A stretch of 64,000 nucleotides of DNA from the IMG/VR virus record IMGVR_UViG_3300037184_000121, positions 1-64,000 of that record; one strand, 5' to 3'. The position numbers and the translations under genes were made by a program. Origin of the DNA: a virus. This document shows, in pieces, positions 9,424-62,815 of the stretch (position 1 is the first letter of the stretch; every line of letters starts with the position of its first letter). Below the pieces are notes generated by a model, which saw nothing but the letters and a program-made list of their open reading frames with translations, was not told the origin of the DNA and ran no database searches.

Positions 9424-10497
9424 ATGCCTAATTATAGATGGAAACAAATTTTAGAAATGTACCCAAATCAACAAGAAGTAATTGATTTGTATAATTCTAA
9501 ACAAATAAAAGAATTAAAAGAGCTTTGGAATTGTTCTGTGGATTGTGTTCGAACTGTTAGAGATAAACTTGGATTACAAAAGAAGAATATCTCTCAGATT
9601 GAATTAATACAAAGATACACAAAAGAACAATTAGAAGATTTATATTTTAATAAGTATGATCGACATTTGAAAGATATGTCTGCAGGTCTTAATGTTTATC
9701 AAGATACGTTGTCTCAAGTTTTTGAAACCTTGAATATTGTTCAACAACCACATCATGTAAGTGAGTATGTTGAAGTGAGACAAATTTTAAGTGAAAAAGC
9801 TAAAGAAAGAGCAAAAATTGAAAATCCAATTAATCACATTTTAGATCATCCTGATTGGATTGATAATATGGTAAAGGCACGACAAGATAATGATAGTTAT
9901 CAAAAGCCTCATCATAAGAATGAACATGCTTTGGCAATTCCTCTTGAACAATTAAAGCAGGAGGTACAATTTTTAGGCATTCAAGAAATGGCAAAGAAGT
10001 ATGAATGTAGTCCGTCTACTTTATATCAAATTTGTAAAGATAATAATATTGAATTATCTACAGGGGCTCCTCTTGCGATAAGGCAGACCGAGAAGTATAA
10101 ACAACAAGCTTATAGACGTGGTGTATTGGGAGTTTTAAAAGTAAAGAGAGCAGATACTGACATAGAGAAGTTGTTAAAACACGAATTGAGATTTAGGAAA
10201 ATCAAATTTAGAAGTCGAAAGCGTTTAATAAAAAGAACTATCCCAGATGTCATTATTCAACCCAATATAGCAGTTTTTACTGATGGGTGTTTTTGGCATG
10301 GTTGTCCTGAACATTGCCCAACAAGTAAAATTGGATTGGGACGTTCTGTGGTAGATTTAGAAATTAATATTGAGTTAGCTAAGAAAGGTTATAAAGTATT
10401 TAGAATTTGGGGTCATGATGTGAAAGATCCTATTAAATTAAAAGAATTTGTTAACACTGTAGAAGCCTATATCAATGAGCAGAAAAATAGAAGATAA
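9424..10497 (+). CDS. Vsr/DUF559-like homing endonuclease
   Basis: This 357-residue protein ends in a Vsr-type nuclease domain (about 240-350): IPDVIIQPNIAVFTDGCFWHGCPEHCP carries the Asp and the FWHGC core typical of very-short-patch-repair endonucleases and I-Bth0305I-like homing enzymes, followed by a KVFRIWGHDV strand. The N-terminus has a helix-turn-helix-like module (WKQILEMYPN, then ELKELWNCS), also present at the C-terminus of the GIY-YIG enzyme at 22184. A second HTH-like segment is at about 185-215. It has its own promoter and is most likely selfish DNA rather than a repair enzyme. Confidence 0.85.
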   Translation: MPNYRWKQILEMYPNQQEVIDLYNSKQIKELKELWNCSVDCVRTVRDKLGLQKKNISQIELIQRYTKEQLEDLYFNKYDRHLKDMSAGLNVYQDTLSQVFETLNIVQQPHHVSEYVEVRQILSEKAKERAKIENPINHILDHPDWIDNMVKARQDNDSYQKPHHKNEHALAIPLEQLKQEVQFLGIQEMAKKYECSPSTLYQICKDNNIELSTGAPLAIRQTEKYKQQAYRRGVLGVLKVKRADTDIEKLLKHELRFRKIKFRSRKRLIKRTIPDVIIQPNIAVFTDGCFWHGCPEHCPTSKIGLGRSVVDLEINIELAKKGYKVFRIWGHDVKDPIKLKEFVNTVEAYINEQKNRR

Positions 10498-10672
10498 TCC
10501 ACTTTGTATTTGTGGGCATCATCAAGGAATTCATCTTATGGATGGTAAGACTAGATGCCTTTGGGAAGAAAATGAATTATCACCTAAATATGATTGGTGT
10601 AGATGTAATAAGTTTAAACAAGATAACCTTAAGTTTTTAGAGATGCACTATGAAAAGAAAACCAAAATTTGA
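10475..10672 (+). CDS. small zinc-knuckle protein with C-terminal NLKFLE motif
   Basis: This 65-residue protein overlaps the end of the endonuclease by 23 nt. It has CICGHHQGIH, two later Cys groups (CLW, CRC) and a C-terminal FKQDNLKFLEMHYEKK. The Cys/His pattern C-x-C-x-H-x4-H followed by C...C-x-C looks like a small zinc-binding fold. The DNLK(Y/F)LE tail recurs in at least seven other small proteins in this window (50352, 55112, 59494, 59669, 59877, 60097, 60494). Function unknown; the others are early-region genes, so this one is an outlier. Confidence 0.65.
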   Translation: MSRKIEDNPLCICGHHQGIHLMDGKTRCLWEENELSPKYDWCRCNKFKQDNLKFLEMHYEKKTKI

Positions 10673-44815: not shown

Positions 44816-45592
44816 ATGCATAAATTTACCTGGAAACCAGATCTACCTGATTTTCGTGATCTTACGTATAAGGCTATCCATAAGTACAGCCTTTATGAAC
44901 TTCCAGTAGCAGCAGATTTACGTTCTAGTTGTTCTCCTGTTGAAAATCAGGATCAGCTAGGCTCTTGCACAAGTTTCGCTTTGGCTGGAGCCCTTGAATT
45001 CTTGGAAGAGAAAGCTCTTTCAACAAAAACTGCTTCTGCTGAGATTCTTGCTTCTACCTATACTCCTTTTTCTCACCTTTTCATTTATTATAATGAACGT
45101 GATATGGAAGGTGACGTAAATGAGGATGGAGGTGGGCAGCTTCGAGATGGAATTAAGACATTGGCTACCCTTGGAGGCTGTTCAGAGCTTACTTGGCCCT
45201 ATGATGAGTCTAAAGTGTTTGATAAGCCCTCCGATGCATCTTATCAGGAAGCTCTTCAGCATAAAATTACTTCTTACCTTAGTTTGAATTCTATATCTGA
45301 TATGAAGCATTGTCTTTCAGATGGATTTCCCTTTGCTTTTGGATTTACGGTCTACGACTCCTTTGAGTCTGAAGAAACAGCTCGAACGGGTATTCTGAAG
45401 ATGCCTACTTATACAGATAGTTGTGTGGGTGGACATGCAGTGCTGGCAGTTGGCTACAGTGATGCTGAGCAAATGTTCATCGTTCGTAATTCCTGGGGTT
45501 CAGGCTGGGGCTTACAGGGATACTTCAAGATGCCCTACCAATATATCATGAATGCAAATCTAGCCTCGGATTTCTGGACGATTCGTAAGTAA
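44816..45592 (+). CDS. papain-like (C1A) cysteine peptidase
   Basis: This 258-residue protein has the full C1A set: oxyanion Gln45 in ENQDQLGSC, nucleophile Cys51 in GSCTSFALAGALEF, His207 in CVGGHAVLAVGY and Asn225 in VRNSWGSGWG. It starts directly with FTWKPDLPDFRDLTY, a motif seen in prokaryotic and viral papain-like enzymes, with no long propeptide and no signal peptide. The AAAGGAG site is strong. Placement after the fibre genes suggests a late role: virion maturation, fibre processing or host protein cleavage. Confidence 0.9.
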   Translation: MHKFTWKPDLPDFRDLTYKAIHKYSLYELPVAADLRSSCSPVENQDQLGSCTSFALAGALEFLEEKALSTKTASAEILASTYTPFSHLFIYYNERDMEGDVNEDGGGQLRDGIKTLATLGGCSELTWPYDESKVFDKPSDASYQEALQHKITSYLSLNSISDMKHCLSDGFPFAFGFTVYDSFESEETARTGILKMPTYTDSCVGGHAVLAVGYSDAEQMFIVRNSWGSGWGLQGYFKMPYQYIMNANLASDFWTIRK

Positions 45593-46811: not shown

Positions 46812-47585
46812 ATCATAACCCTGAAGAGTAGTGAACATGTAGAACTTATTAAGAAAGCTGGCACAATCCTTTCGGATTGCCTCAGCTTTTTGTCGTTACA
46901 AGTACAACCTGGGGTGACAGGTTTACAGATTGATAAATTAGCAGATGATTTCATTCAGTCTCATGGTGGAACTGCTGCCTGTAAAGGATTTGAGGGATAT
47001 ACAGCAGCAACCTGCATTTCAGTTAATGCCAATGCAGTTCATTGTATCCCAGATAATAAACCATTTTTAGAAGGGGATATAGTAAAACTAGATATAGTAG
47101 TAGATTACCATGGCTGGAAAGCTGATTCTGCTATAAGTGTTCTCATTCCTCCAGTTAAACCAGAAGTCAGAAAGCTTGCAGAAACCACGTATACAGCAAT
47201 GCTACAGGGGATTTCAGCGTGTATTAATGGAAATACAGTCCAGAGTGTCAGTCAGGCAATTTATGACGCTAGAAACGAATATGGTATAGAATGTGGTGTA
47301 GTGAAAGAATTCACAGGGCATGGAATTGGACAAAATATCCATGAAGGGCCTTCTATTCCTAATGTGGTTATAAAAGAGAAGAATTCTCTCCTTGTTGAGG
47401 GGATGGTGCTTTGTATTGAACCTATTTTCTGCCTTGGAAAACCTGATATCTATTATAAAAAGGGGGAATGGAATACTTGGATGATGGACGGAGGTTTTGT
47501 TTCTCACTGGGAACACACAGTATTAGTAACTAACAATGTTCCTGAAATTTTAACATTACGAAAGGAAGAACGAGATCTTTTATGA
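46812..47585 (+). CDS. map: type I methionine aminopeptidase, non-canonical or uncertain start
   Basis: All five metal ligands and the key His are visible: HCIP, Asp in VKLDIVVDYHGWKADSA (two Asp), His in FTGHGIGQNIHEGPS, Glu in MVLCIEPIF and Glu in SHWEHTVLV. The enzyme removes the initiator Met from nascent proteins. The first standard start codon in frame is TTG at 46890, which would delete the N-terminal helix. The frame upstream reads ITLKSSEHVELIKKAGTIL, a normal MetAP N-terminus, and opens after a TGA at 46800. I therefore place the start at ATC/ATA near 46812; a frame error or frameshift is possible. Confidence 0.75.
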   Translation: MITLKSSEHVELIKKAGTILSDCLSFLSLQVQPGVTGLQIDKLADDFIQSHGGTAACKGFEGYTAATCISVNANAVHCIPDNKPFLEGDIVKLDIVVDYHGWKADSAISVLIPPVKPEVRKLAETTYTAMLQGISACINGNTVQSVSQAIYDARNEYGIECGVVKEFTGHGIGQNIHEGPSIPNVVIKEKNSLLVEGMVLCIEPIFCLGKPDIYYKKGEWNTWMMDGGFVSHWEHTVLVTNNVPEILTLRKEERDLL

Positions 47586-48043: not shown

Positions 48044-48460
48044 ATGAGAACTGTCTTATTCATCTGCAGTGGTAACACTTGCCGAAGTCCAATGGCAATG
48101 AGTGTTGCCAGGACCTACCCTAAAATCTATGCATTTTCTAGGGGTCTTTCTGCTATGGATGGGGCTACAATGTCAGAGTGTGCTAAAAAGGCTTTAGAAT
48201 TAGCTAAGATCCCAGTGTCTCCTCATAAATCCAGGATGCTGCGTCCTGCTGATGTTGCACGAGCTGATTTGATTCTGGTGATGACTACCGTTCATCTCAA
48301 GGATATGAAGGTTGTATATCCAGAGGCTGCTGGTAAGACTTTCATGCTTAATCCCTTGGCTGATGTCGCTGATCCATTTGGTGATGAGTTGGAGCCATAC
48401 GTTAAGTGTCTTGAGAAGATTCAGGACTGGATAGCTCCGTGGTTGGACCAGCAAAAATAA
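48044..48460 (+). CDS. low-molecular-weight phosphatase, protein-arginine-phosphatase-like
   Basis: This 138-residue protein has the P-loop CSGNTCRSPMA (Cys8, Arg14) and the acid in DVADPFGDE (Asp110), so it is a catalytically complete LMW phosphatase. In the P-loop, Thr12 replaces the Ile usual in tyrosine phosphatases; Thr at this position and DPFG rather than DPYY are features of YwlE-type protein arginine phosphatases, as is DLILVMTTVHLKDM. The start is 6 nt after a -10 box. It could reverse host protein phosphorylation early in infection. Substrate is inferred. Confidence 0.85.
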   Translation: MRTVLFICSGNTCRSPMAMSVARTYPKIYAFSRGLSAMDGATMSECAKKALELAKIPVSPHKSRMLRPADVARADLILVMTTVHLKDMKVVYPEAAGKTFMLNPLADVADPFGDELEPYVKCLEKIQDWIAPWLDQQK

Positions 48461-49747: not shown

Positions 49748-50362
49748 ATGCGTGTAAGGTATAATTTAGTCAGGAAAAAATTTGGTAGGCTTTTAGTGAC
49801 GAGTTTCCACCATAAGGATGAAAAATACAGAAGTAATTTCTGGAATTGTCAATGTGAATGTGGTAATATATTAGTACTTTCTGCATCAACTCTTCAAAGA
49901 AAGAAAAGACCTACAATATCATGTGGATGCTATAGATATGATAGGGTGTCGGGTCAGCCAGCTCCAAATAGATTACTTAAGGGTCGAGCAAATTTTAATT
50001 CCTTATTTCAGTCCTATATAAAAGCTGCTAAACAGCGAGAAATAATTTTTCTTCTAACACAAGAGGAATTTCGACAATTGACTAGTCAGAATTGTCATTA
50101 TTGTAATAGTGAGCCACTGCAGAACCATAGTAAAAGGGAAACCTACGGTTCTTATTTATATAATGGTATAGATCGTTTAGATTCTGATAAATCTTATATC
50201 TTAGATAATTGCGTTTCTTGCTGCAAGGTATGTAATTATGCCAAACGAATTATGACAGTTGAAGAGTTTAAATTTTGGATTACACGAGTATATAATAATT
50301 TTGTAAACCGAAGATTGGAGGATCATCCCCTCTCCTCAGCTCCAATTTCTTATGAGCAATGA
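49748..50362 (+). CDS. HNH homing endonuclease with N-terminal zinc domain
   Basis: This 204-residue protein has an N-terminal zinc motif found in many HNH homing enzymes (FWNCQCECGNILVLSASTLQ, then SCGC) and a C-terminal HNH domain: CHYCNSEP, NGIDRLDSDKSYILDN and CVSCCKVCNYAKR. It is preceded by GAGGA. Its end overlaps the next small gene by 11 nt. The flanking genes are short early genes. Confidence 0.85.
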   Translation: MRVRYNLVRKKFGRLLVTSFHHKDEKYRSNFWNCQCECGNILVLSASTLQRKKRPTISCGCYRYDRVSGQPAPNRLLKGRANFNSLFQSYIKAAKQREIIFLLTQEEFRQLTSQNCHYCNSEPLQNHSKRETYGSYLYNGIDRLDSDKSYILDNCVSCCKVCNYAKRIMTVEEFKFWITRVYNNFVNRRLEDHPLSSAPISYEQ

Positions 50363-50588
50363 ATGTCCTTTACCGTGTAAGATTTGCTTTCACCCAGGAG
50401 AGCAGCATTTTGTATTTGAAGATACTGTTACCGAGTGGTTATTTAATGAGGATGTCGGTCATGAGGTCGAAGTAAATTCACCTTATCCTCGTCCTGTCTG
50501 TAATGAATGTTCAAGGGATTGTGTTTTTGAAGAGATGACTAATTTGGAATTTGTGGAATGGAAATATGATAATCATCAATGTAAGTAA
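50352..50588 (+). CDS. zinc-knuckle protein with NLEFVE tail
   Basis: This 78-residue protein has CKICFHPGEQHFVFED, later CNECSRDC, and the C-terminal MTNLEFVEWKYDN. It matches the C-x-C/C-x2-C-x-H-x4-H plus NLxYLE family seen at 10475, 59669, 59877, 60097 and 60494, as a more diverged member. It overlaps both neighbours. Function unknown. Confidence 0.65.
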   Translation: MSNECPLPCKICFHPGEQHFVFEDTVTEWLFNEDVGHEVEVNSPYPRPVCNECSRDCVFEEMTNLEFVEWKYDNHQCK

Positions 50589-52017
50589 TGTGAAGAGCCA
50601 GCTTGTGGGTGAACTTGATCCCAGAGTGATCTCAGCCCTACGTGCTAAACTATCTGCAGAGATGGTTGGAGCCTTTTTTGCTCGTCGAGCCAATCCCTAT
50701 GCAGGAGTCAGATACTTTTTCACTCCAAAGACTCAGATGTTTCCTACAGGCATGATCCATTACGTGCGTGATATTCTTGATAAATATGGAGTTGCTTGGG
50801 AGATCGTTGATTTACGTCCTATTGCACAGCCTGGGACTGAAATGCCTTTGCATGGTGTAATCCTACGTGATTATCAGCAGGAAGCGGTAGATCTAGCTGT
50901 CCAGAAGCAACGAGGTATCATAAGAGCTGGTACGGGGGCAGGTAAGAGTGCTGTTCTATCAGGTATCATTGGTCGGCTGAATATGAAGACTCTCATCCTG
51001 ATCCATAAGCAAGACATCTTCTATCAGTTGATCAGAACCTTTGAGAAAAATCTTCAGATACCTATTGGAAAGATCGGTGACGGTGAATGCGAATTTCAGA
51101 ATGTGACGGTAGCTATGGTTCAGACAGTTGCTCATGTCTTCAATCCAAAGGTTAAGGTCCTGGCAAAGGATAATAAGATTCTGAAGGAGAAGGCAGACGT
51201 TATTAGGCAGTTTCTTTCAGGTGTCGAGTGTGTTCTGGTAGATGAAGCCCATCATATTGCTGCAGATACCTTTTGGGATGTAATGCAGAATATTCCTAAA
51301 GCTACCTATCGTATCGGGGTGACAGCGACTGCATTTAGGGAAGATAATATGGATCTGATGCTTGAGGGAGCCTTGGCGAAGAAATTTGTGGACATCTCTT
51401 CCTCTGATTTGATTGATCGTAAATTTTTAGTCCCTCCGTCTATCTATCTGTATCCCATAGATCATCCAAGGCGTAAAAAAGATGATCCCTATGCTGTTGT
51501 CTATGGTGAAGAGATCGTTAACAACATAGAACGTAATATGCTGATCTGCAATCTCGCTCTGAAGGCTAAACATGCAGGGAAAGCTGTGCTGATAGCGGTG
51601 ACACAGATTGAGCATGGAGAAACTTTAGAAAAGCTGTTGCAATCTGTAGATAAATCTGCTATATTTGTTAATGGTCAGTCAAAATCTGAAACCCGTAAGC
51701 AGATTCTGCAAGAGCTTGGTCAGGGTACAGTGAGAATTGTTGTGGCTACAAATATCTACTCAGAAGGAGTGGATATGCCAGCTCTGTCAGTCTTAATAAA
51801 CGCTGCAGGAGCTGCCTCTGGCATTCATTCCTTGCAGTTGCTTGGTCGAGTGCTTAGAACAGCTCCAGGTAAGACGAAAGCCTGGGTTGTGGATTTGCAA
51901 GATGATGGGAAGTTTTTAAACAATCATTCAAAGGAACGGGTCAACATTTATACGACGGAACCTCGTTATAAACTGATTCCTGTGAAGGATATTTCGGAGG
52001 TGAATTTTAATGACTAA
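50566..52017 (+). CDS. SF2 DNA/RNA helicase (UvsW-like)
   Basis: Helicase motifs are clear: LRDYQQEAVDLAVQ (Q-like region), Walker A GTGAGKS, DEAH in VLVDEAHHIA, VTATAFRED (motif III), NIYSEGVDMP (motif V) and LLGRVLRTAPGK (motif VI). The N-terminal 110 residues precede the motor domain, as in UvsW/RadD-type enzymes that act on recombination intermediates or stalled forks. I choose ATG at 50566 behind GGAA; TTG at 50551 and GTG at 50590 are alternatives. The stop overlaps the metallophosphoesterase start, pairing the two functionally. Confidence 0.85.
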   Translation: MIIINVSNVKSQLVGELDPRVISALRAKLSAEMVGAFFARRANPYAGVRYFFTPKTQMFPTGMIHYVRDILDKYGVAWEIVDLRPIAQPGTEMPLHGVILRDYQQEAVDLAVQKQRGIIRAGTGAGKSAVLSGIIGRLNMKTLILIHKQDIFYQLIRTFEKNLQIPIGKIGDGECEFQNVTVAMVQTVAHVFNPKVKVLAKDNKILKEKADVIRQFLSGVECVLVDEAHHIAADTFWDVMQNIPKATYRIGVTATAFREDNMDLMLEGALAKKFVDISSSDLIDRKFLVPPSIYLYPIDHPRRKKDDPYAVVYGEEIVNNIERNMLICNLALKAKHAGKAVLIAVTQIEHGETLEKLLQSVDKSAIFVNGQSKSETRKQILQELGQGTVRIVVATNIYSEGVDMPALSVLINAAGAASGIHSLQLLGRVLRTAPGKTKAWVVDLQDDGKFLNNHSKERVNIYTTEPRYKLIPVKDISEVNFND

Positions 52018-52654
52018 GATTGATTGCATCAGTGACTTGCATATGTACTTTGGGCCTAAGCTCGAAGGTGGGGATATTCTCATTATGTCGGGGGATATTT
52101 CATTTGTCGGCAATGCTATAGACTTTGCTGAGTTCGATTTTTGGCTTGGCAAGATCAAGCACCAGTATAAAGCTATTATTGTGACTCCAGGAAATCATGA
52201 TCTGGGCAGTCAGCGTAATCCTTCCTTGTTTAAATCATTGATTACGAATGCTACCTATTTGGTGAATGAACCTGCTACCATCTTGGGTCTGAAGTTCTGG
52301 GTAAGTCCGATGACACCTACCTTTATGAATTGGGCATGGATGGCAGACCGTGGTGCATCGATTAAGAGATATTGGGACATGATCCCTGAAGGAACGGATG
52401 TAATTGTGACACATGGACCACCATTTGGTATTTTGGATGCTTGCCCTGACATGGATGATTCTACAAAGCTGGTAAACGTCGGATGTGAGGAACTTTTGAA
52501 AGCGGTGCAGCGAATTAAGCCTCGCTTGCACATTTTTGGACATATTCATGAGGGTCATGGTCAAGTCACGATTGATGGAACTACTTTTATCAATGCTTCC
52601 ATTATGAATGGTCAGTATCAGCCAGTGAATAGTCCGATTACAATAAATATTTAA
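52010..52654 (+). CDS. calcineurin-like metallophosphoesterase
   Basis: This 214-residue protein carries the family motifs in order: DCISDLHMYF (Asp, His), LIMSGDISF (GD), VTPGNHDLG (GNHD), VTHGPPFG (His) and IFGHIHEGHG (GHxH). Such two-metal enzymes hydrolyse phosphomono- or diesters, including nucleotides and DNA ends. It overlaps the helicase gene by 8 nt, so it may process DNA in the same pathway. The substrate cannot be told from sequence. Confidence 0.85.
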   Translation: MTKIDCISDLHMYFGPKLEGGDILIMSGDISFVGNAIDFAEFDFWLGKIKHQYKAIIVTPGNHDLGSQRNPSLFKSLITNATYLVNEPATILGLKFWVSPMTPTFMNWAWMADRGASIKRYWDMIPEGTDVIVTHGPPFGILDACPDMDDSTKLVNVGCEELLKAVQRIKPRLHIFGHIHEGHGQVTIDGTTFINASIMNGQYQPVNSPITINI

Positions 52655-52698: not shown

Positions 52699-52784
52699 GA
52701 GTGGTGTACAGCGTAATGGGGAACGGTGCCCCATCCCTTTATAAGGGGTTGCTCATAGATACGAGTTCGACTCTCCTCACCCTC
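52699..52784 (+). ncRNA. tRNA-like RNA (degenerate or unusual tRNA)
   Basis: The 3' part ACGAG-TTCGACT-CTCCT is a T-arm-like hairpin (one mismatch). CACCCTC, just after it, can pair with GAGTGGTG at the 5' end with one bulged T, as an acceptor stem. ATCCC-TTTATAA-GGGGT forms an anticodon-like arm with U33 and anticodon UAU (Ile), and the D region contains AATGGGGA. The segment between the 5' arm and the anticodon arm is about 6 nt too long, so it is not a standard cloverleaf. No CCA is encoded. It may be a decayed tRNA, a tRNA mimic or a regulatory leader. Confidence 0.4.
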
Positions 52785-52826
52785 AAAATTTTGTATGTGT
52801 TAAATGAAATAATAGAGGTGATCCAA

Positions 52827-53822
52827 GTGAAAAAGTTACTAGCCGTACTAGCCGTGGTTTTAGTGTCGAGGTTTAGTTTTGCAGATCCGTCTACAATTGG
52901 TACACAACCACCTTCAGCTGGGTGGAATTTCGGTAACGTAACTTATGGACAAGAGGGGGGATCTCTTATCCTTAATTCATTGAGTGATCGTTATGGGATT
53001 GCACAGTTTCAAACTGCAAATACCAACGGTCAAACTACTCAAATGCTTGGGAACGCAGATTACATCCCAGAAGCAGCCGTTAAGAATCAATTGGCGATTG
53101 ATGGCTACACTCAGGCATGGGATTATAATCCTCAGTATGCGGGGATTGATGCTTCCTATTACAATCAGTCCCTCCCTACGAATATTCCTTTAACTGAATT
53201 AAGCTTTACTGGACTGGCAGGAGATCCAACTGCTCTGCAAAACGTCTATGTTCCTACTTCTGAATACAATGCTCTGTCAGCTCAGGGGCAAGCAGCCAGT
53301 ATCAGCACTTTGAATACTGGTCTTGCCACCACGAATACCCAGGTGGCAGCAAATACAGCAGGTATCACTTCCATAAATAATATGAGTGATCCTACAACAG
53401 TGTTGAACCAGGCTGTGAATGGTAACACTGTAGCGATTGCAAATGAAACAGTTAGAGCTACAACCACAGAGAATTCTTTGTACACAGGGCTTAATAATGA
53501 AACAGCACGAGCCCAAGGTGCCGAAGCTGGGCTGCAGAATCAGGTTAATGCTACCAATAGTAAGGTAGCTAACCTAGATAACCGTGTTGACAAGTTGGAA
53601 CAGGTTAAGGCTATGGTTGATATGAATGTACGTATTCTTGATGCAAAGAAGTATTCAGTAGGTTTCTTTGATACTTGGGATGTGTCCAATAGTAGGAACT
53701 TTGCCTTTGGTGCTCGTTTGACATACAAGCTTGGTTCGTCGTATGAGGAACGTCAACTTGAGAAGCAGCAGAAGCAGATTGAAGCCTTACAGCGAGTATT
53801 GACCAAGATTGCTAATCAGTAA
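52827..53822 (+). CDS. secreted coiled-coil protein with outer-membrane-like C-terminus
   Basis: I choose the GTG at 52827 behind GAGGTG; the frame further upstream runs through the tRNA-like RNA. The 331-residue product begins with a signal peptide (KKLLAVLAVVLVSRFSFA, then DPS). After a globular part comes a stalk-like coiled coil (about 145-265: NTQVAANTAGITSINN, VNATNSKVANLDNRVDKLEQ), then a beta-rich end (YSVGFFDTWDVSNSRNFAFG, ARLTYKLGS) and a final helix. The plan resembles trimeric autotransporter-like surface proteins. It may alter the host surface, for example superinfection exclusion (inference). Confidence 0.65.
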   Translation: MKKLLAVLAVVLVSRFSFADPSTIGTQPPSAGWNFGNVTYGQEGGSLILNSLSDRYGIAQFQTANTNGQTTQMLGNADYIPEAAVKNQLAIDGYTQAWDYNPQYAGIDASYYNQSLPTNIPLTELSFTGLAGDPTALQNVYVPTSEYNALSAQGQAASISTLNTGLATTNTQVAANTAGITSINNMSDPTTVLNQAVNGNTVAIANETVRATTTENSLYTGLNNETARAQGAEAGLQNQVNATNSKVANLDNRVDKLEQVKAMVDMNVRILDAKKYSVGFFDTWDVSNSRNFAFGARLTYKLGSSYEERQLEKQQKQIEALQRVLTKIANQ

Positions 53823-55111: not shown

Positions 55112-55609
55112 ATGAATTATGGGGAGTTCTTAGCAGAAGCTCTTGGTGGTATTTTAATCTCCTATAAAGAGCATGGTAGCTCTCAGGGAGATTATGTTGC
55201 GATCATTGAAAAAGATCATGACTGGCATATTTATAAAGGGAGTTATGGATCTTGTACTGGTTGTGATTGGTTAAAGGGTACTCGAATTTATAGTGAAGAA
55301 GACTACAAGAAGTATGATCAAGATACGTATGATAGGGAAGCTCTTGAGAAGTGCGAAATCCTTCAATCGGTTAAGGACGAATATTTAAAAGAGAATGAGC
55401 CTTTCCTTATCATTCCAAAGTCTCAGATGCCTGAAACCTTAGAAGATTTGAAAGCTCTTTTGCCAGCGAACACAAGAACGATTGCTGACGAGAATTATAA
55501 TGACTTGGATTTGGATGCAGTGATTTTTGAGCAGATGAAAAATTTTCGATTGAATAACTTAGAGTATTTAGAAAAGAAAATTGAAGGCAAGGAGAGTTAT
55601 GGCGAATAA
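55112..55609 (+). CDS. hypothetical protein with NLEYLE C-terminal tail
   Basis: This 165-residue protein has an alpha/beta N-terminal part (DYVAIIEKDHDWHIYKGSYG, with CTGC) and an acidic middle. Its last 20 residues contain FRLNNLEYLEKKIEG, the same C-terminal NLxYLE element as the zinc-knuckle family but attached to an unrelated body. The start is 2 nt after the previous gene. Function unknown. Confidence 0.6.
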   Translation: MNYGEFLAEALGGILISYKEHGSSQGDYVAIIEKDHDWHIYKGSYGSCTGCDWLKGTRIYSEEDYKKYDQDTYDREALEKCEILQSVKDEYLKENEPFLIIPKSQMPETLEDLKALLPANTRTIADENYNDLDLDAVIFEQMKNFRLNNLEYLEKKIEGKESYGE

Positions 55610-55833: not shown

Positions 55834-55998
55834 ATGAAAAAACTACTGAAGAAAGTCCTAATTAGCAAGAGGGAGAAGATTCCAGTTCAAGATCCTGTAC
55901 AGGTACTTATTGCTCGTTTATGTGATCCTTTAGATCCCATATATGATGCAGAATTTGTAAAAGGTATGAATGAAACAAATCCCTTTAACACAAAATAA
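55834..55998 (+). CDS. 54-residue basic protein
   Basis: The ATG at 55834 has AAAGGAGAG 8 nt upstream; ATG at 55828 is possible but too close. The N-terminus is very basic (KKLLKKVLISKREK), and the rest is acidic. The 3' end overlaps the HNH/AP2 gene by 29 nt, probably because the endonuclease gene inserted at this end. Confidence 0.5.
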   Translation: MKKLLKKVLISKREKIPVQDPVQVLIARLCDPLDPIYDAEFVKGMNETNPFNTK

Positions 55999-56431
55999 AG
56001 TAGCTCTAGTAGATGATGACACCTATGAGGCTATTGGTTCCTTGAAATGGTATGCCCTTAAGGATAAGCAAAGATGGTATGCAGGTCGGGCTGTAGGCTC
56101 TGGTATTAGAGCAATAATGCGTATGCATCATTGCATTGTTGGTCAACCCTTAAATAATGATGAGGTAGATCACATTGATGGTGATGGTCTGAATAATCAA
56201 AGATCGAATTTAAGGATTGTTTCTAAAAGATTAAATCAAGGTAATCAGATAAATAGAATCAACCCTAAATCTTCAAAATATGTTGGAGTTTCTTTTAGAA
56301 AAGCAACTGGAAGATGGGAAGCAGGTCTTAAGATTAATAATAAAAGAAAACATCTAGGATATTTTTTCTCCGAACAAGAAGCACATGAAGCTTACTTAAA
56401 CGCTTTAAGTAATTTAAATGAAAATAAGTAA
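55970..56431 (+). CDS. HNH endonuclease with AP2 DNA-binding domain
   Basis: This 153-residue protein begins with KQIPLTQNKVALVDDDTYEA, has an HNH core (MRMHHCIVGQPLNNDEVDHI, DGDGLNNQRSNLRI) and an AP2 domain (SSKYVGVSFRKATGRWEAGL followed by HLGYFFSEQEAHEAY). This is the standard architecture of phage HNH-AP2 homing endonucleases. It starts inside the preceding small gene. Confidence 0.9.
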   Translation: MKQIPLTQNKVALVDDDTYEAIGSLKWYALKDKQRWYAGRAVGSGIRAIMRMHHCIVGQPLNNDEVDHIDGDGLNNQRSNLRIVSKRLNQGNQINRINPKSSKYVGVSFRKATGRWEAGLKINNKRKHLGYFFSEQEAHEAYLNALSNLNENK

Positions 56432-56576
56432 TAATGGTAGTTTCTTAGACGTATCAGTATCTCACGGTTTGTTTAATATGAATGCCCAGGTCAAATTGGT
56501 AAACCTTTTGATTGGGTACGCTATATTAGGTTTGATTATTGCTGTCCGTTGGTATCGTAAACATAAAAATAAATGA
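56418..56576 (+). CDS. 52-residue small membrane protein
   Basis: The frame begins inside the end of the HNH gene and ends overlapping the start of the transporter (ATGA). One membrane helix (VNLLIGYAILGLIIAVRW) is followed by a basic tail. It could be an accessory subunit of the transporter, judging only from coupling; an internal ATG at 56478 is an alternative start. Confidence 0.5.
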   Translation: MKISNNGSFLDVSVSHGLFNMNAQVKLVNLLIGYAILGLIIAVRWYRKHKNK

Positions 56577-57745
56577 ACTTTCTATTTGTCCTTGCAGCAC
56601 TAGTTCACTTCAGTCAGGGTATTGCGTCCCTGGCTGGTCAACCTTTATACTATTACCTGAGAGAACACCTGGGTATCAGCGTTTCCACTATTATGCTGAT
56701 TGGTTCACTCACGAATCTACCATGGATGCTGAAACCTTTGTATGGATTCCTTAGTGACTCATACCCCATTTTTTCCCTCCGTCGTAAACCCTACATTTTT
56801 ATCAGTGGAGCTATCTGTAGCATTATGGCCCTTGTGATCGGGCTTTCCCCTATTGTTTCCCTTAGCGTGTTGATCGGATTCCTTTTCATTTATGCCATTG
56901 GGCAAGCAGGAGATAATGTTGCCGTGAATGGTCTTGTGGTGGAGCAGGGGGTGAAGGATGGGACTGTGGGCAAGTATCAAAGTGTCCAATGGGCAAGCCT
57001 TGGTGTAGCGACTATCATTACAGGTATCCTGGGCGGCTATATCTCTGAAAAGGCTGATTATCACTTTGCCTATTTGGTGATTGCTTTATTTCCTGCATCT
57101 ATTATGGTGCTATCCTTCTGGCTCAAAGAAGAGAAGTGTAAGAAGATTATCAGAACGATTGGTTCTATGCATCCTACTAAAGAGTTTTTTGTTAAGCTGA
57201 ATAATCGGCAGCTCATCCTTTCAACTGCTTTCCTATTCCTGTTTTGGTTTGATCCATCCTTTGGGACTCCATTAATGGACAAGATGCGTAACACCCTTCA
57301 TTTTTCGAAGATTTGGATTGGATGGCTGGATACCATTGGCTCAGCATTTGGTATCGTTGGAGCGTTGATTTATTTTAAGTACAATAAGGGTCTAAATGTT
57401 AAAAAATGGCTGTATTATAGCGTTATTTTGAATGGTATCTTTACATTCGCCTATCTGTGGCTTACTCCCACAACTATACTGATTTATAGTGTTGTTTTTA
57501 ATGTCACTGGTCAGTTTACTCATCTTTTGATGCTTGGGATGATGGCCTATATGTGTCCAGAGGGCACTGAAGCCACTACATTTGCCCTTCTAACGGCTAT
57601 TGTTAACTTTGGGTCATTCTGTTCAGGCATCGTTGGGGCAAAGTTATTTGGGCTATTTGGATACAATGGATTGGTCATTATTTCGGCAGCAGCAGGGTTT
57701 CTCTGTTTGCCATTTATACCATTTCTACAGGTGCGAAATAAATAA
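56573..57745 (+). CDS. BT1/folate-biopterin-like MFS transporter
   Basis: This 390-residue protein has about 12 hydrophobic segments and the BT1-family N-terminal pattern: SLAGQPLYYYLREHLGIS, IMLIGSLTNLPWMLKPLYGF, LSDSYPIFSLRRKPYIF (the MFS loop 2-3 motif), then AIGQAGDNVAVNGLVVEQGV. Relatives import folates, pteridines or amino acids. Full-length MFS transporters are rare in phages, and this one is intact. It overlaps the preceding small membrane gene. Substrate and direction of transport cannot be told from sequence. Confidence 0.8.
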   Translation: MNFLFVLAALVHFSQGIASLAGQPLYYYLREHLGISVSTIMLIGSLTNLPWMLKPLYGFLSDSYPIFSLRRKPYIFISGAICSIMALVIGLSPIVSLSVLIGFLFIYAIGQAGDNVAVNGLVVEQGVKDGTVGKYQSVQWASLGVATIITGILGGYISEKADYHFAYLVIALFPASIMVLSFWLKEEKCKKIIRTIGSMHPTKEFFVKLNNRQLILSTAFLFLFWFDPSFGTPLMDKMRNTLHFSKIWIGWLDTIGSAFGIVGALIYFKYNKGLNVKKWLYYSVILNGIFTFAYLWLTPTTILIYSVVFNVTGQFTHLLMLGMMAYMCPEGTEATTFALLTAIVNFGSFCSGIVGAKLFGLFGYNGLVIISAAAGFLCLPFIPFLQVRNK

Positions 57746-59493: not shown

Positions 59494-59676
59494 ATGATTA
59501 GGTATTTTGTCAAAAGTCAACGGTTTCAATTTAGCGTTAAGGATGAATTTTTATGTGGTGGGAAACCACTATGGGATCAGACACTGATGGATTTAGCAGG
59601 GATTGGTATAAATTATATTCCAGCGGATAATTTAAAATATTTAGAAAAGTGTTGGGAAGAATCTATAAATGAATAG
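59494..59676 (+). CDS. 60-residue protein with NLKYLE tail, no zinc knuckle
   Basis: This protein has a beta N-terminus (RYFVKSQRFQFSVKDEF) and ends with ADNLKYLEKCWEES, the motif of the zinc-knuckle family, but only two isolated Cys. It starts the overlapping operon 59494-60463. It shows that the NLKYLE tail occurs on a non-zinc-knuckle body. Confidence 0.6.
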   Translation: MIRYFVKSQRFQFSVKDEFLCGGKPLWDQTLMDLAGIGINYIPADNLKYLEKCWEESINE

Positions 59677-59884
59677 TATTCCTTGTAAATGTAGTCATGG
59701 ATTAGAGGAGCATTTTCTAAATTCATCAAATAGGATTACATGCAGAGTGTGTGCTGCTCCAATATTTAGCATGAGCAAGGAAGAATGGAATTTAAAAAAG
59801 AAAGAATTAAGGTTTTATTGGGTACATCCATACAAGAGAGATAACCTCAAATATTTGGAGCAGTTGGTGAGTAACAATGACTGA
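59669..59884 (+). CDS. zinc-knuckle protein with NLKYLE tail
   Basis: This 71-residue protein overlaps the previous gene by 8 nt. CKCSHGLEEHFLNSSNRITC gives the C-x-C-x-H-x4-H part, then CRVCAAP, and the C-terminus has KRDNLKYLEQLVSNN. It belongs to the family of at least eight small proteins with this tail. Function unknown. Confidence 0.7.
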   Translation: MNSIPCKCSHGLEEHFLNSSNRITCRVCAAPIFSMSKEEWNLKKKELRFYWVHPYKRDNLKYLEQLVSNND

Positions 59885-60104
59885 GCAAGAGCGTCAAGAA
59901 CAGCGCATTAACTTTTATAAAATAAGGGCTATGTCTCCTTGCCTCTGCAGCCATGAATCTATCGATCATACCTGTTGGGTAGATGCTGATGGAAGTGGAA
60001 AAGGACTTGTGTATCCTGATTTTAGATACTGTGACACAAGGTATTGTGAATGTGAGAAGTATAAACAAGACAATCTAAGATACCTGGAGAGTTTAAGTGA
60101 GTAA
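59877..60104 (+). CDS. zinc-knuckle protein with NLRYLE tail
   Basis: This 75-residue protein overlaps its neighbours by 8 nt on each side. An N-terminal helix precedes CLCSHESIDHTCWVDADGSG; then YCDTRYCECEKYKQDNLRYL and E complete the zinc knuckle and tail. The tail lies directly after the last Cys pair, as in the copies at 10475 and 60097. Confidence 0.7.
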   Translation: MTEQERQEQRINFYKIRAMSPCLCSHESIDHTCWVDADGSGKGLVYPDFRYCDTRYCECEKYKQDNLRYLESLSE

Positions 60105-60291
60105 AGATTTTCCTTGTGAGTGTGGACACATAAGGCAGTCAGAGGAAACCCTCAACAGTATTTGTGTATCATGGCATGATGATAGAGATAATGATCATCA
60201 ATTAGCTGCATGTCGCTACTGTGATTGTAAGAGATACAGACCAAGTAATTTAAAGTATTTAGAAAGGTTGGCTGAAAAGTATGAATATTGA
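60097..60291 (+). CDS. zinc-knuckle protein with NLKYLE tail
   Basis: This 64-residue protein has CECGHIRQSEETLNS, then CRYCDCKRYRPSNLKYLERL. The first knuckle lacks the second His at the usual spacing, but extra His and Cys residues follow. Overlaps neighbours on both sides. Function unknown. Confidence 0.7.
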   Translation: MSKDFPCECGHIRQSEETLNSICVSWHDDRDNDHQLAACRYCDCKRYRPSNLKYLERLAEKYEY

Positions 60292-60463
60292 AATGAAAGA
60301 TGATGAAGTATTTGATTTTTTAAGTAAGAAATTGACCGTTCTTCAAGTTGATATAAAATATAATGAGAATGGGCCTACTTGGTTAGCACAGATGGAGAAG
60401 ATAAAATCCTTAACTAGAGCTGTGGAAGTTATAGTTAATAGGAAATTTAATGAACCTGAGTAA
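60281..60463 (+). CDS. 60-residue helical protein at the end of the zinc-knuckle operon
   Basis: The product is helical and acidic (MKDDEVFDFLSKKLTVLQVD, MEKIKSLTRAVEVIVNRKF). It overlaps the previous gene by 11 nt. No Cys. It could be a partner of the zinc-knuckle proteins, judging by coupling only. Confidence 0.55.
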   Translation: MNIEMKDDEVFDFLSKKLTVLQVDIKYNENGPTWLAQMEKIKSLTRAVEVIVNRKFNEPE

Positions 60464-60471
60464 TAAAGCCC

Positions 60472-60495
60472 TTGACAGCACTGGATAATTATAAT
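60472..60495 (+). promoter_or_regulatory. promoter-like remnant with abnormal spacing
   Basis: CCC-TTGACA is followed by TATAAT after only 12 bp instead of 17, in the usual place between two operons. TTGACA and TGTCAA at 60495-60500 also form an inverted repeat. The ATG of the next gene overlaps the TATAAT. It looks like a promoter that lost about 5 bp. Confidence 0.4.
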
Positions 60496-60835
60496 GTCAA
60501 ACAGTAATAGATATATAAGTGTTTTGAAATGCAAATGTAATCATAAATATTATGAGCATGAGTTTTTCGATAGCAAGGATATAGGGTTTGATATTGATCC
60601 TCGTCCAGAAGCATGTATTTATTGCGAATGTCTTGATTTTGTAGATTGGAGAATAAATAGGTGGTGTATTTGTGGTCATGCTGAAAGTGAACACCATCTT
60701 GGCATTGTATCAGGTTCTACTATTTGTCGTGAGTGTCTTAGGTTTAATATAAATCGTAATACTCATCCATTTAGGCCAGATAATCTAAGATATTTGGAAT
60801 GGAAATGGGAAGAAAAATTAGCTCTTGACAAGTAG
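60494..60835 (+). CDS. double zinc-knuckle protein with NLRYLE tail
   Basis: This 113-residue protein carries two knuckles in tandem: CKCNHKYYEHEF...CIYCECLDF and CICGHAESEHHLGI...CRECLRF, then FRPDNLRYLEWKWEEKL. It is the longest family member. The start is uncertain because the ATG overlaps a -10-like sequence; a TTG at 60524 would still keep both knuckles. Its 3' end overlaps the -35 box of the next promoter. Confidence 0.65.
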   Translation: MSNSNRYISVLKCKCNHKYYEHEFFDSKDIGFDIDPRPEACIYCECLDFVDWRINRWCICGHAESEHHLGIVSGSTICRECLRFNINRNTHPFRPDNLRYLEWKWEEKLALDK

Positions 60836-61282: not shown

Positions 61283-61439
61283 TGCTATAACAAGTTGTCA
61301 ATCTAAGAAACGCTATGATGGGGAAGCTGAGGCAGAACAGACAGCTATGTATTTGTATACTTATAAAGCAGTGGTAGTTAAATCTTATCATTGTACAGTA
61401 TGTCTTGGATGGCATCTCACTAGACGAGGAACAGTATAA
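61272..61439 (+). CDS. 55-residue zinc-finger-like protein
   Basis: The sequence SCQSKKRYDGEAEAEQTAMY followed by YHCTVCLGWHLTRRG matches a small phage/bacterial zinc-finger protein type with a C..KRRY..EAEA..Y.C..C.GWHLT pattern. It overlaps both neighbours and lies directly before the helicase, sharing a base with its start (TAATG). Confidence 0.65.
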   Translation: MKPNAITSCQSKKRYDGEAEAEQTAMYLYTYKAVVVKSYHCTVCLGWHLTRRGTV

Positions 61440-62815
61440 TGGATTCTACACTAGAAGGTAAATTTTTAGCACATGTTTTAAAAAGTCCCAGTGGCTTAGC
61501 CATAGCCCAGCAAAAAGGTATAACCTCAGATTTTTTCCAGGAAGATGTATCCAAAAAATTGTTTGATATTAACCGTTGGTACGTTAATACCTATGGAGTT
61601 CTTCTTTCTGCCAGCGAATTAGAGGGTTCCTTAAAGCAAGCTACTACCCTGGACGATGAATTTAAGAAATCTATTCTTAAATCATTCTTCGAGTTGCAGC
61701 TTCTTCCGTTAGATACAGATATCAATTTTCTTTGTGATCAATTCAGCACTTATTATAAAAAGAATCTGTTAGAGACTGCCTTAAGACGTGCAGGGGCAAA
61801 ATATTCTAATAATGAAATTGAAGATTCTATTGCAGCCTTGAAATATGATTTGGTTAAGATTGACAGTAAATTTCGAGTTGAAGAGAGTCGATCAGGTCAA
61901 CTTGATGAGTTTGGGGATCGAATTTTTGCTGAATATGAGGATCGTAAGGTAAATCCAAGTAAATATGAAGGCTTAAAATTAGGCTTTGGAGAACTTGACA
62001 AGATAATTGGTGGACTTGTGAAATCTAGTGTGTCTATTTTGCTTGCCCCTCCTAAAGATTTTAAGACAGCTTTAGCAATGACTATTTGTTATAATGTTGC
62101 AAAACGAGGGGTATATTCAGTTTATTTTGCAAATGAAGGTACAATCGAACTTTTTTACATGCGGTTTGCAGCAATGGAGCTTAGTATACCTCTATCTAAC
62201 ATAAAAGATGGAAATATGACAGGCATGGAAGAATCAAGATGGATTCAATTTATAACCTCAGTTAGAGAAGGTAAACATCAGATCCTAAATAAGATATATT
62301 TTGCAGAAGTACCACTGTCATTAAGTACACCCACCTATCTTGCTGAATTGCTTAAGAAACTTAGAGAAGAAGGTAAGAATGTTGGCTTAGTTGTTATTGA
62401 TCACTTTGGTCGTATGACTACTACAGATAAGACTATTTCACAAGATTGGCAAAAAAAAGGGGTAGTTGCTGAGGAATTGTGTAATTTGGCACGATCTGAA
62501 CGTGTTCCTTTCTTTTTATTGACACATGTAAAATCTCAAAGTGCAAAAGATGCTTTAGAAGACAATGCAGATTTCTCAGCATACGATATCGAAAGGTCGG
62601 GACAGCCCCTTAAAGATGTTGATTATGTCTTTAGTTGGCGTATAGAAAATCGTGAAGAATTTGATAGGAATGGCAAAAAAGGATTTGCTCGCCTTGCCTT
62701 AGTACTTTCCAGACATTCAGAAACATGTGGTTCAGTATTACAAATCAATGGAAAATATATGCAGATCCAAGAAATGAAGATAGGTGGCACCAATCAGGTA
62801 AATAACAATGAGTAG
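61439..62815 (+). CDS. DnaB-like replicative helicase
   Basis: This 458-residue protein has an N-terminal helical domain (1-110), a linker and a RecA-like C-terminal domain. The domain has LGFGELDKIIGGLVKSSVSI, the P-loop region LLAPPKDFKTAL (about 202-212), FANEGTIELFYMRFAA (motif 1a with Glu), GLVVIDHFGRM (Walker B), FFLLTHVKSQS (H3-like) and a DVDYVFSWR stretch. The P-loop lacks the glycine before Lys (FKT in place of GKT), which is unusual. It would unwind the phage fork. Confidence 0.8.
   Translation: MDSTLEGKFLAHVLKSPSGLAIAQQKGITSDFFQEDVSKKLFDINRWYVNTYGVLLSASELEGSLKQATTLDDEFKKSILKSFFELQLLPLDTDINFLCDQFSTYYKKNLLETALRRAGAKYSNNEIEDSIAALKYDLVKIDSKFRVEESRSGQLDEFGDRIFAEYEDRKVNPSKYEGLKLGFGELDKIIGGLVKSSVSILLAPPKDFKTALAMTICYNVAKRGVYSVYFANEGTIELFYMRFAAMELSIPLSNIKDGNMTGMEESRWIQFITSVREGKHQILNKIYFAEVPLSLSTPTYLAELLKKLREEGKNVGLVVIDHFGRMTTTDKTISQDWQKKGVVAEELCNLARSERVPFFLLTHVKSQSAKDALEDNADFSAYDIERSGQPLKDVDYVFSWRIENREEFDRNGKKGFARLALVLSRHSETCGSVLQINGKYMQIQEMKIGGTNQVNNNE

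What the first reader, a model, noticed from the sequence alone, without database searches (positions are those of the whole stretch)
56573..57745. Intact BT1/MFS-type transporter gene in a phage
A complete 12-helix transporter with the BT1-family motifs is coupled to a 52-residue membrane protein. Related carriers move folates, pterins or amino acids. It may be an auxiliary metabolic gene that feeds nucleotide synthesis during infection.
Basis: partly seen in the sequence, partly recalled or inferred. Interest (0 to 1): 0.75.

Follow-up and report, generated by a model that had tools for sequence, protein, structure and literature searches.

The report
Phage-encoded BT1-type membrane transporter
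A group of uncultured tailed phages carries an intact small-molecule transporter gene kept under strong selection; in four of seven relatives it sits beside genes that rebuild NAD+, the cofactor bacteria destroy to stop infection, so it may import a building block of NAD+ rather than folate.

Summary
Window 56573-57745 (+) is an intact 390-aa ORF, BT1 family (PF03092, E 9e-41), with a confident AlphaFold2 MFS fold (pLDDT 92). It lies in a 107.6-kb phage record. Seven related IMG/VR phage records, counting this one, carry it near the DnaB helicase gene. Purifying selection is strong (dN/dS 0.04 between two relatives). tblastn finds no relative in 50,697 GenBank phages. The phage proteins form one clade, apart from the cyanobacterial type known for folate transport, and lack that clade's invariant charged residues. 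The NCBI folate/biopterin model scores half its cut-off. The 52-aa membrane ORF overlaps the start (ATGA) but is not conserved. So the folate/pterin reading is weak, not excluded (thyA/thyX occur in up to three relatives). The new lead: in four of seven phages the gene is next to NARP1 (Adps-Namat, NAD+ reconstitution against NADase defences), with the published Namat signature. NARP1 is absent from this record, which is incomplete, from the 180-kb relative, and from the 20 kb examined of a third. Best reading: a functional phage carrier importing a small heteroaromatic nutrient, most likely an NAD+ precursor such as nicotinamide. The substrate is inferred.

The parts
56573..57745 (+). BT1/MFS-type secondary carrier, 390 aa, intact
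56418..56576 (+). 52-aa ORF with one hydrophobic segment; stop overlaps the carrier's start (ATGA); not conserved in relatives
55970..56431 (+). HNH/AP2-like homing-endonuclease-type ORF upstream (type judged by eye); homologue in L006
57746..61438 (+). Stretch between carrier and DnaB that in L008, L014 and L147 holds Adps and Namat; here only small Cys-rich and HNH-like ORFs and no convincing NARP1 remnant
61439..62815 (+). DnaB-like helicase, syntenic marker downstream of the carrier in all seven related phages
50551..52017 (+). SF2 (ResIII/Helicase_C) helicase, upstream marker, 76-82% identical in two relatives
52010..52654 (+). Calcineurin-like metallophosphoesterase; in L006 its homologue directly precedes the carrier

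Best explanation
The gene makes a working MFS secondary carrier of the BT1 branch, placed in the host inner membrane early in infection with the replication genes. It most likely imports, by ion-coupled rocker-switch transport, a small heteroaromatic nutrient. The best-supported candidate is an NAD+ precursor, nicotinamide above all, because in four of seven related phages the gene lies beside NARP1, whose Namat joins nicotinamide to ADP-ribose pyrophosphate to remake NAD+ after host NADase defences destroy it. Shown: intact BT1/MFS carrier, phage-borne, conserved, strongly selected, NARP1 neighbours in four relatives. Inferred: early expression, membrane site, direction of transport, ion coupling, substrate. 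In phages without NARP1, this one included, the carrier would serve host salvage of the same compound.
For: Intact ORF, BT1 profile and confident MFS model. Seven phage homologues plus one distant, one clade 98/95. Strong constraint: dN/dS 0.044 for the pair L242/L243 against 0.033 for their DnaB. Carrier directly upstream of Adps (about 7-12 bases apart) and Namat in L008 and L014, one lipoprotein-like gene upstream in L147, and 2.2 kb downstream of Namat in L165/L242. All four Namats carry GSYTYQY-x-TRD, the published signature (PMC12774641); R40 of SPbetaL1 Namat is kept in those checked; L008 Namat matches Namat structure 9w5x at 3e-183. The order carrier-[NARP1]-DnaB persists although the L014 Namat is from another Namat branch. 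Phages with a different NAD-precursor carrier, PnuC, are reported (papers found, not read).
Against: NARP1 is absent from this record (incomplete, no TerL found), from the 180-kb relative (TerL found) and from the 20 kb around the gene in L243, yet the carrier is kept, so its task is not tied to NARP1. About 38 other viral loci with a Namat/NAMPT-type gene have no BT1 or other poly-TM protein within about 4 kb. No BT1 carrier is known to me to move nicotinamide. Nicotinamide partly crosses membranes unaided. Co-location may reflect an insertion-prone early region near DnaB.
Confidence: 0.33

Rival explanations
1. Folate/pterin importer: the carrier brings in reduced folates or pterins to feed phage thymidylate and nucleotide synthesis.
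For: BT1 is the folate/biopterin family by name and TIGR00788 is the best NCBIfam match. ThyX over cut-off in G001, a weak sub-cut-off ThyX match in G006 and ThyA in G002.
Against: TIGR00788 score is half its cut-off. Separate clade from the cyanobacterial type, without its invariant charged residues. No Thy enzyme in the window record, and in relatives these lie kilobases away, not adjacent.
Confidence: 0.2
2. Importer of another nutrient (nucleobase, amino acid, sugar phosphate or other vitamin), unrelated to NAD or folate.
For: The nearest cellular relatives are about 30-35% identical and their neighbours give no substrate clue. The carrier is kept without NARP1. Fold neighbours include G6PT and monocarboxylate carriers.
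Against: No phage gene of such a pathway was found next to it; NARP1 is the only recurrent neighbour cassette seen.
Confidence: 0.3
3. Efflux pump of the DHA1 type that exports a host defence metabolite or toxic compound.
For: Top fold matches include the drug:proton antiporters SotB, NorA and MdfA.
Against: Fold alone does not tell the families apart. Profile match is to BT1. The antiporter motif C (GPxxGG, helix 5) reads TGILGG here, without the proline (residues 150-155).
Confidence: 0.1
4. Passenger host gene caught recently or binned in error, without function for the phage.
For: Cellular BT1 genes exist.
Against: Conserved in seven related phages in synteny with DnaB, phage-only clade, dN/dS 0.04, no near cellular relative found.
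Confidence: 0.03

Closest known systems
Cyanobacterial and plastid folate carriers (slr0642 type, BT1/FBT family)
   Same: BT1 profile, universal residues (W51, K54-P55, S61-D62, R71, E124, W140, P329, E333, N345), MFS fold
   Different: Separate clade, 26-29% identity; lacks the cyanobacterial invariant R22, W86, R251, R253 and D305 equivalents; TIGR00788 below cut-off
BT1-like carriers of Nitrosomonas, Rokubacteria and Nitrospirota (uncharacterised)
   Same: Nearest cellular relatives, about 30-34% identity, same residue at several positions (Q23, Q139, Y294, S371)
   Different: Phage clade has its own invariant residues (D236, R239, K246, W225, W251, W279); cellular neighbours unrelated
NARP1 (Adps + Namat), phage NAD+ reconstitution pathway 1
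   Same: Adps and Namat genes, with the Namat signature, adjacent in four related phages
   Different: Absent from the window record; other NARP1 loci have no transporter next to them, so the carrier is no standard part of NARP1
Phage PnuC nicotinamide riboside/NMN carriers
   Same: Phage-encoded carrier, by annotation for an NAD precursor
   Different: Different protein family and fold; here BT1/MFS and substrate untested

Membership tests
BT1 family (Pfam PF03092) | Score over the curated cut-off across most of the model | tested here: met
   140.4 bits against 22, positions 1-380 of 432
BT1 family (Pfam PF03092) | Family-wide conserved residues | tested here: met
   More than 25 positions invariant or nearly so across phage, bacterial and cyanobacterial members
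Folate/biopterin transporter subfamily (TIGR00788) | Score over the curated subfamily cut-off | tested here: not met
   112.7 bits against 216.4
Cyanobacterial-type folate carriers | Membership of that clade | tested here: not met
   Split 100/100 from the phage clade
Cyanobacterial-type folate carriers | Clade-invariant charged residues | tested here: not met
   R22, R251, R253 and D305 equivalents replaced in all phage copies that cover them
Cyanobacterial-type folate carriers | Folate transport activity | not testable with these tools
   Needs an uptake assay
MFS DHA1 drug:H+ antiporters | Antiporter motif C with GPxxGG in helix 5 | tested here: not met
   TGILGG at residues 150-155; motif recalled from general knowledge
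NARP1 operon | Adps and Namat present with Namat signature | tested here: inconclusive
   Met in L008, L014, L147, L165/L242; not found in the window record, which is incomplete

The most novel reading that the evidence does not exclude
The carrier is a nicotinamide importer that works with NARP1 as an optional third component of phage NAD+ reconstitution, supplying the nicotinamide half of NAD+ during NADase-based abortive infection; it would, to my knowledge, be the first BT1-fold nicotinamide carrier and the first MFS carrier in phage counter-defence.
Probability: 0.22. Interest if true: 0.75.

Novelty: new variant of a known kind. Interest (0 to 1): 0.5.

Why it matters
Full MFS carriers look very rare in tailed phages: no tblastn relative in 50,697 phage records, and every named confident match in the viral structure library is from a virus of eukaryotes. 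A selected carrier beside an NAD+ reconstitution operon suggests that some phages control precursor supply as well as NAD+ synthesis, which could be tested with existing NARP1 and NADase-defence assays. It also warns against reading BT1 as folate by name.

Tried and rejected
A single-protein viral scan and an alignment-based genome-contig scan found nothing; a DNA pattern for the BT1 motif found both cellular and further phage members. GenBank phages by tblastn with two different phage copies: no usable match. Cellular gene neighbours gave no substrate clue. Fold searches could not separate importer from exporter. The 52-aa ORF as conserved partner: rejected. NARP1 remnants between carrier and DnaB in the window: none convincing (best E 0.02 over 27 aa). 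NMN adenylyltransferase (CTP_transf_like, PF01467), which would point to NARP2-type synthesis: none in six records. Strict vertical descent with DnaB: rejected, since window and L014 share 75% in the carrier but 61% in DnaB, while L014 and L008 share 79% in DnaB but 47% in the carrier, so the carrier recombines among these phages. The folate-carrier mutagenesis paper looked up by DOI was not held, so its residues were not mapped. Host: not identified.

Full report
OBSERVATION. Window 56573-57745 (+) is a complete 390-aa ORF without internal stop. It matches BT1 PF03092 with E 9e-41 (140 bits, cut-off 22) and MFS_1 with E 6e-23. The NCBIfam folate/biopterin subfamily TIGR00788 is the best NCBIfam match but reaches only 112.7 of the required 216.4 bits. 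PHROG 2034, of unknown function, is matched at E 8e-19, so an MFS-like profile from phages has been catalogued before. AlphaFold2 on 39 homologues gives pLDDT 92.3 and pTM 0.90; solved MFS carriers match at Z up to 36.8 (rmsd 2.3 over 351 residues). Such fold matches do not tell importer from exporter.

THE 52-AA ORF. Its TGA overlaps the carrier's ATG as ATGA and it has one hydrophobic stretch, so translational coupling is plausible. Similar tight joins occur in L147 (ATGA, after an unrelated 114-aa gene) and L006 (one base, after the phosphoesterase). The 52-aa protein itself has no homologue in the relatives. I read it as a local neighbour.

CONTEXT. The window is part of a 107,602-base virus record. 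It has tail-sheath-like, baseplate, DnaB, RecA and DNA polymerase A genes but no detected large terminase, so it is probably incomplete. No close relative was found among the cultured phages searched with two core proteins.

RELATIVES. Searches by helicase, DnaB, carrier alignment, DNA motif and a partial carrier found homologues in L006 (180 kb), L008 (61 kb), L014 (contig edge, partial), L136/L147, L165/L242 and L243, and a distant one in L139/L149. Identity to the window copy is 75% (L014), 62% (L147), 51-52% (L006, L008) and about 33% (L149). In all seven of the main group the carrier lies upstream of DnaB. All eight group together (98/95), apart from cyanobacteria and from other bacteria. 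Nearest cellular copies are about 30-35% identical; in a sample of 398 genomes from the phylum of L068, only L068's own genome matched at 1e-30.

SELECTION. For L242/L243 (90% identical) dN/dS by Nei-Gojobori is 0.044 (dS 1.66), against 0.033 for their DnaB. Most other pairs are saturated in dS but have pN 0.18-0.36 against pS about 0.75. The window's branch (0.11-0.17) is no longer than that of its NARP1-bearing sister L014 (0.22-0.23), so there is no sign of relaxation here.

RESIDUES. Universal BT1 positions are kept. The cyanobacterial clade has R22, W86, R251, R253 and D305 (window numbering) in all or nearly all members, which the phage copies replace; the phages have their own invariant D236, R239, K246, W225, W251 and W279. 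The other bacteria also differ from the cyanobacterial residues at several of these positions. That slr0642-type cyanobacterial carriers move folate is from general knowledge. This argues for a different substrate pocket but does not prove it.

NARP1. In L008 and L014 the carrier is followed within about 7-12 bases by a PRPP-synthetase-like gene and then an NAMPT-like gene. In L147 a lipoprotein-like gene and an HNH gene intervene. In L165/L242 the pair lies 2.2 kb upstream of the carrier. The NAMPT-like proteins bear GSYTYQY-x-TRD, the Namat signature described in PMC12774641, and R40 of SPbetaL1 Namat is kept where checked. L008 Namat is 57% identical to SPbetaL1 Namat and matches structure 9w5x at 3e-183. 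The partner, 32-33% identical to SPbetaL1 Adps, is called Adps by pairing, an inference. L014 and L147 also have an inorganic-pyrophosphatase-like gene after DnaB, judged by eye. The L014 Namat belongs to another Namat branch than those of L008 and L147, while the Adps proteins of all three stay together, so parts of the cassette were exchanged but the order stayed.

LIMITS OF THE LINK. Of 80 PRPP-synthetase-like viral loci, about 42 pair with a Namat or NAMPT-type gene; only the four most similar to the query have a BT1 carrier, and the rest show no poly-TM neighbour within about 4 kb. The window record, the 180-kb record of L006 and the L243 region lack NARP1. The carrier is thus the constant gene and NARP1 the variable one. 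No NMN adenylyltransferase-type gene is in any of six records.

FOLATE. No ThyA or ThyX in the window record; ThyX over cut-off in G001, weak in G006; ThyA in G002, about 3 kb before the carrier. These are common phage genes, so this is mild support at most.

VERDICT. A real, functional-looking, lineage-conserved phage BT1/MFS carrier. I give about 0.95 that it is a working carrier, 0.7 that it imports, 0.33 for an NAD+ precursor, 0.2 for folate or pterin. The rest is open.

Noticed in passing
window 10475-10672, 50352-50588, 55112-55609, 59494-60835 (several), and record positions 71672-105788: Twenty small, mostly Cys-rich + strand ORFs share a C-terminal tail like [FY]xPDNL[KR]YLE followed by a few residues; codon-shuffled expectation about 0.2. 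No PHROG match for five tested. Also in L008 and L148. Function unknown; a shared docking or targeting tail is possible.
   Followed up: partly
L006:2784-3521: A ZIP-family metal transporter (PF02535, E 2.5e-44) shortly after the carrier in the 180-kb phage.
   Followed up: partly
record 66473-66925 (L003:2473-2925), 95706-96836 (L004:11706-12836), 99517-100722 (L004:15517-16722): Macro-domain protein, T4 Rnl1-type RNA ligase, and HD plus polynucleotide-kinase-like protein in the window record: possible RNA repair and ADP-ribose handling.
   Followed up: partly
window 44816-45592, 46890-47585, 48044-48460: Papain-family cysteine protease, M24 (methionine-aminopeptidase-type) peptidase and a low-molecular-weight phosphatase-like ORF (family found, placed here by eye). 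A PTH2 peptidyl-tRNA hydrolase match is also in the record.
   Followed up: no
window 52701-53822; L006:3967-4512; L165:860-1372: Exported-looking proteins with YadA-like or collagen-like repeats and a shared C-terminal part (FGAR..KLGSSYEER); possibly surface proteins displayed by the infected cell. Judged by eye apart from tblastn similarity.
   Followed up: no
L136:6932-7783: A 283-aa ORF with a long YSSLYSSLDSSL-type tandem repeat in a related phage.
   Followed up: no
L006:5575-7689: RNA-ligase-like ORF of 704 aa that seems to hold an intein-like insert (by eye).
   Followed up: no
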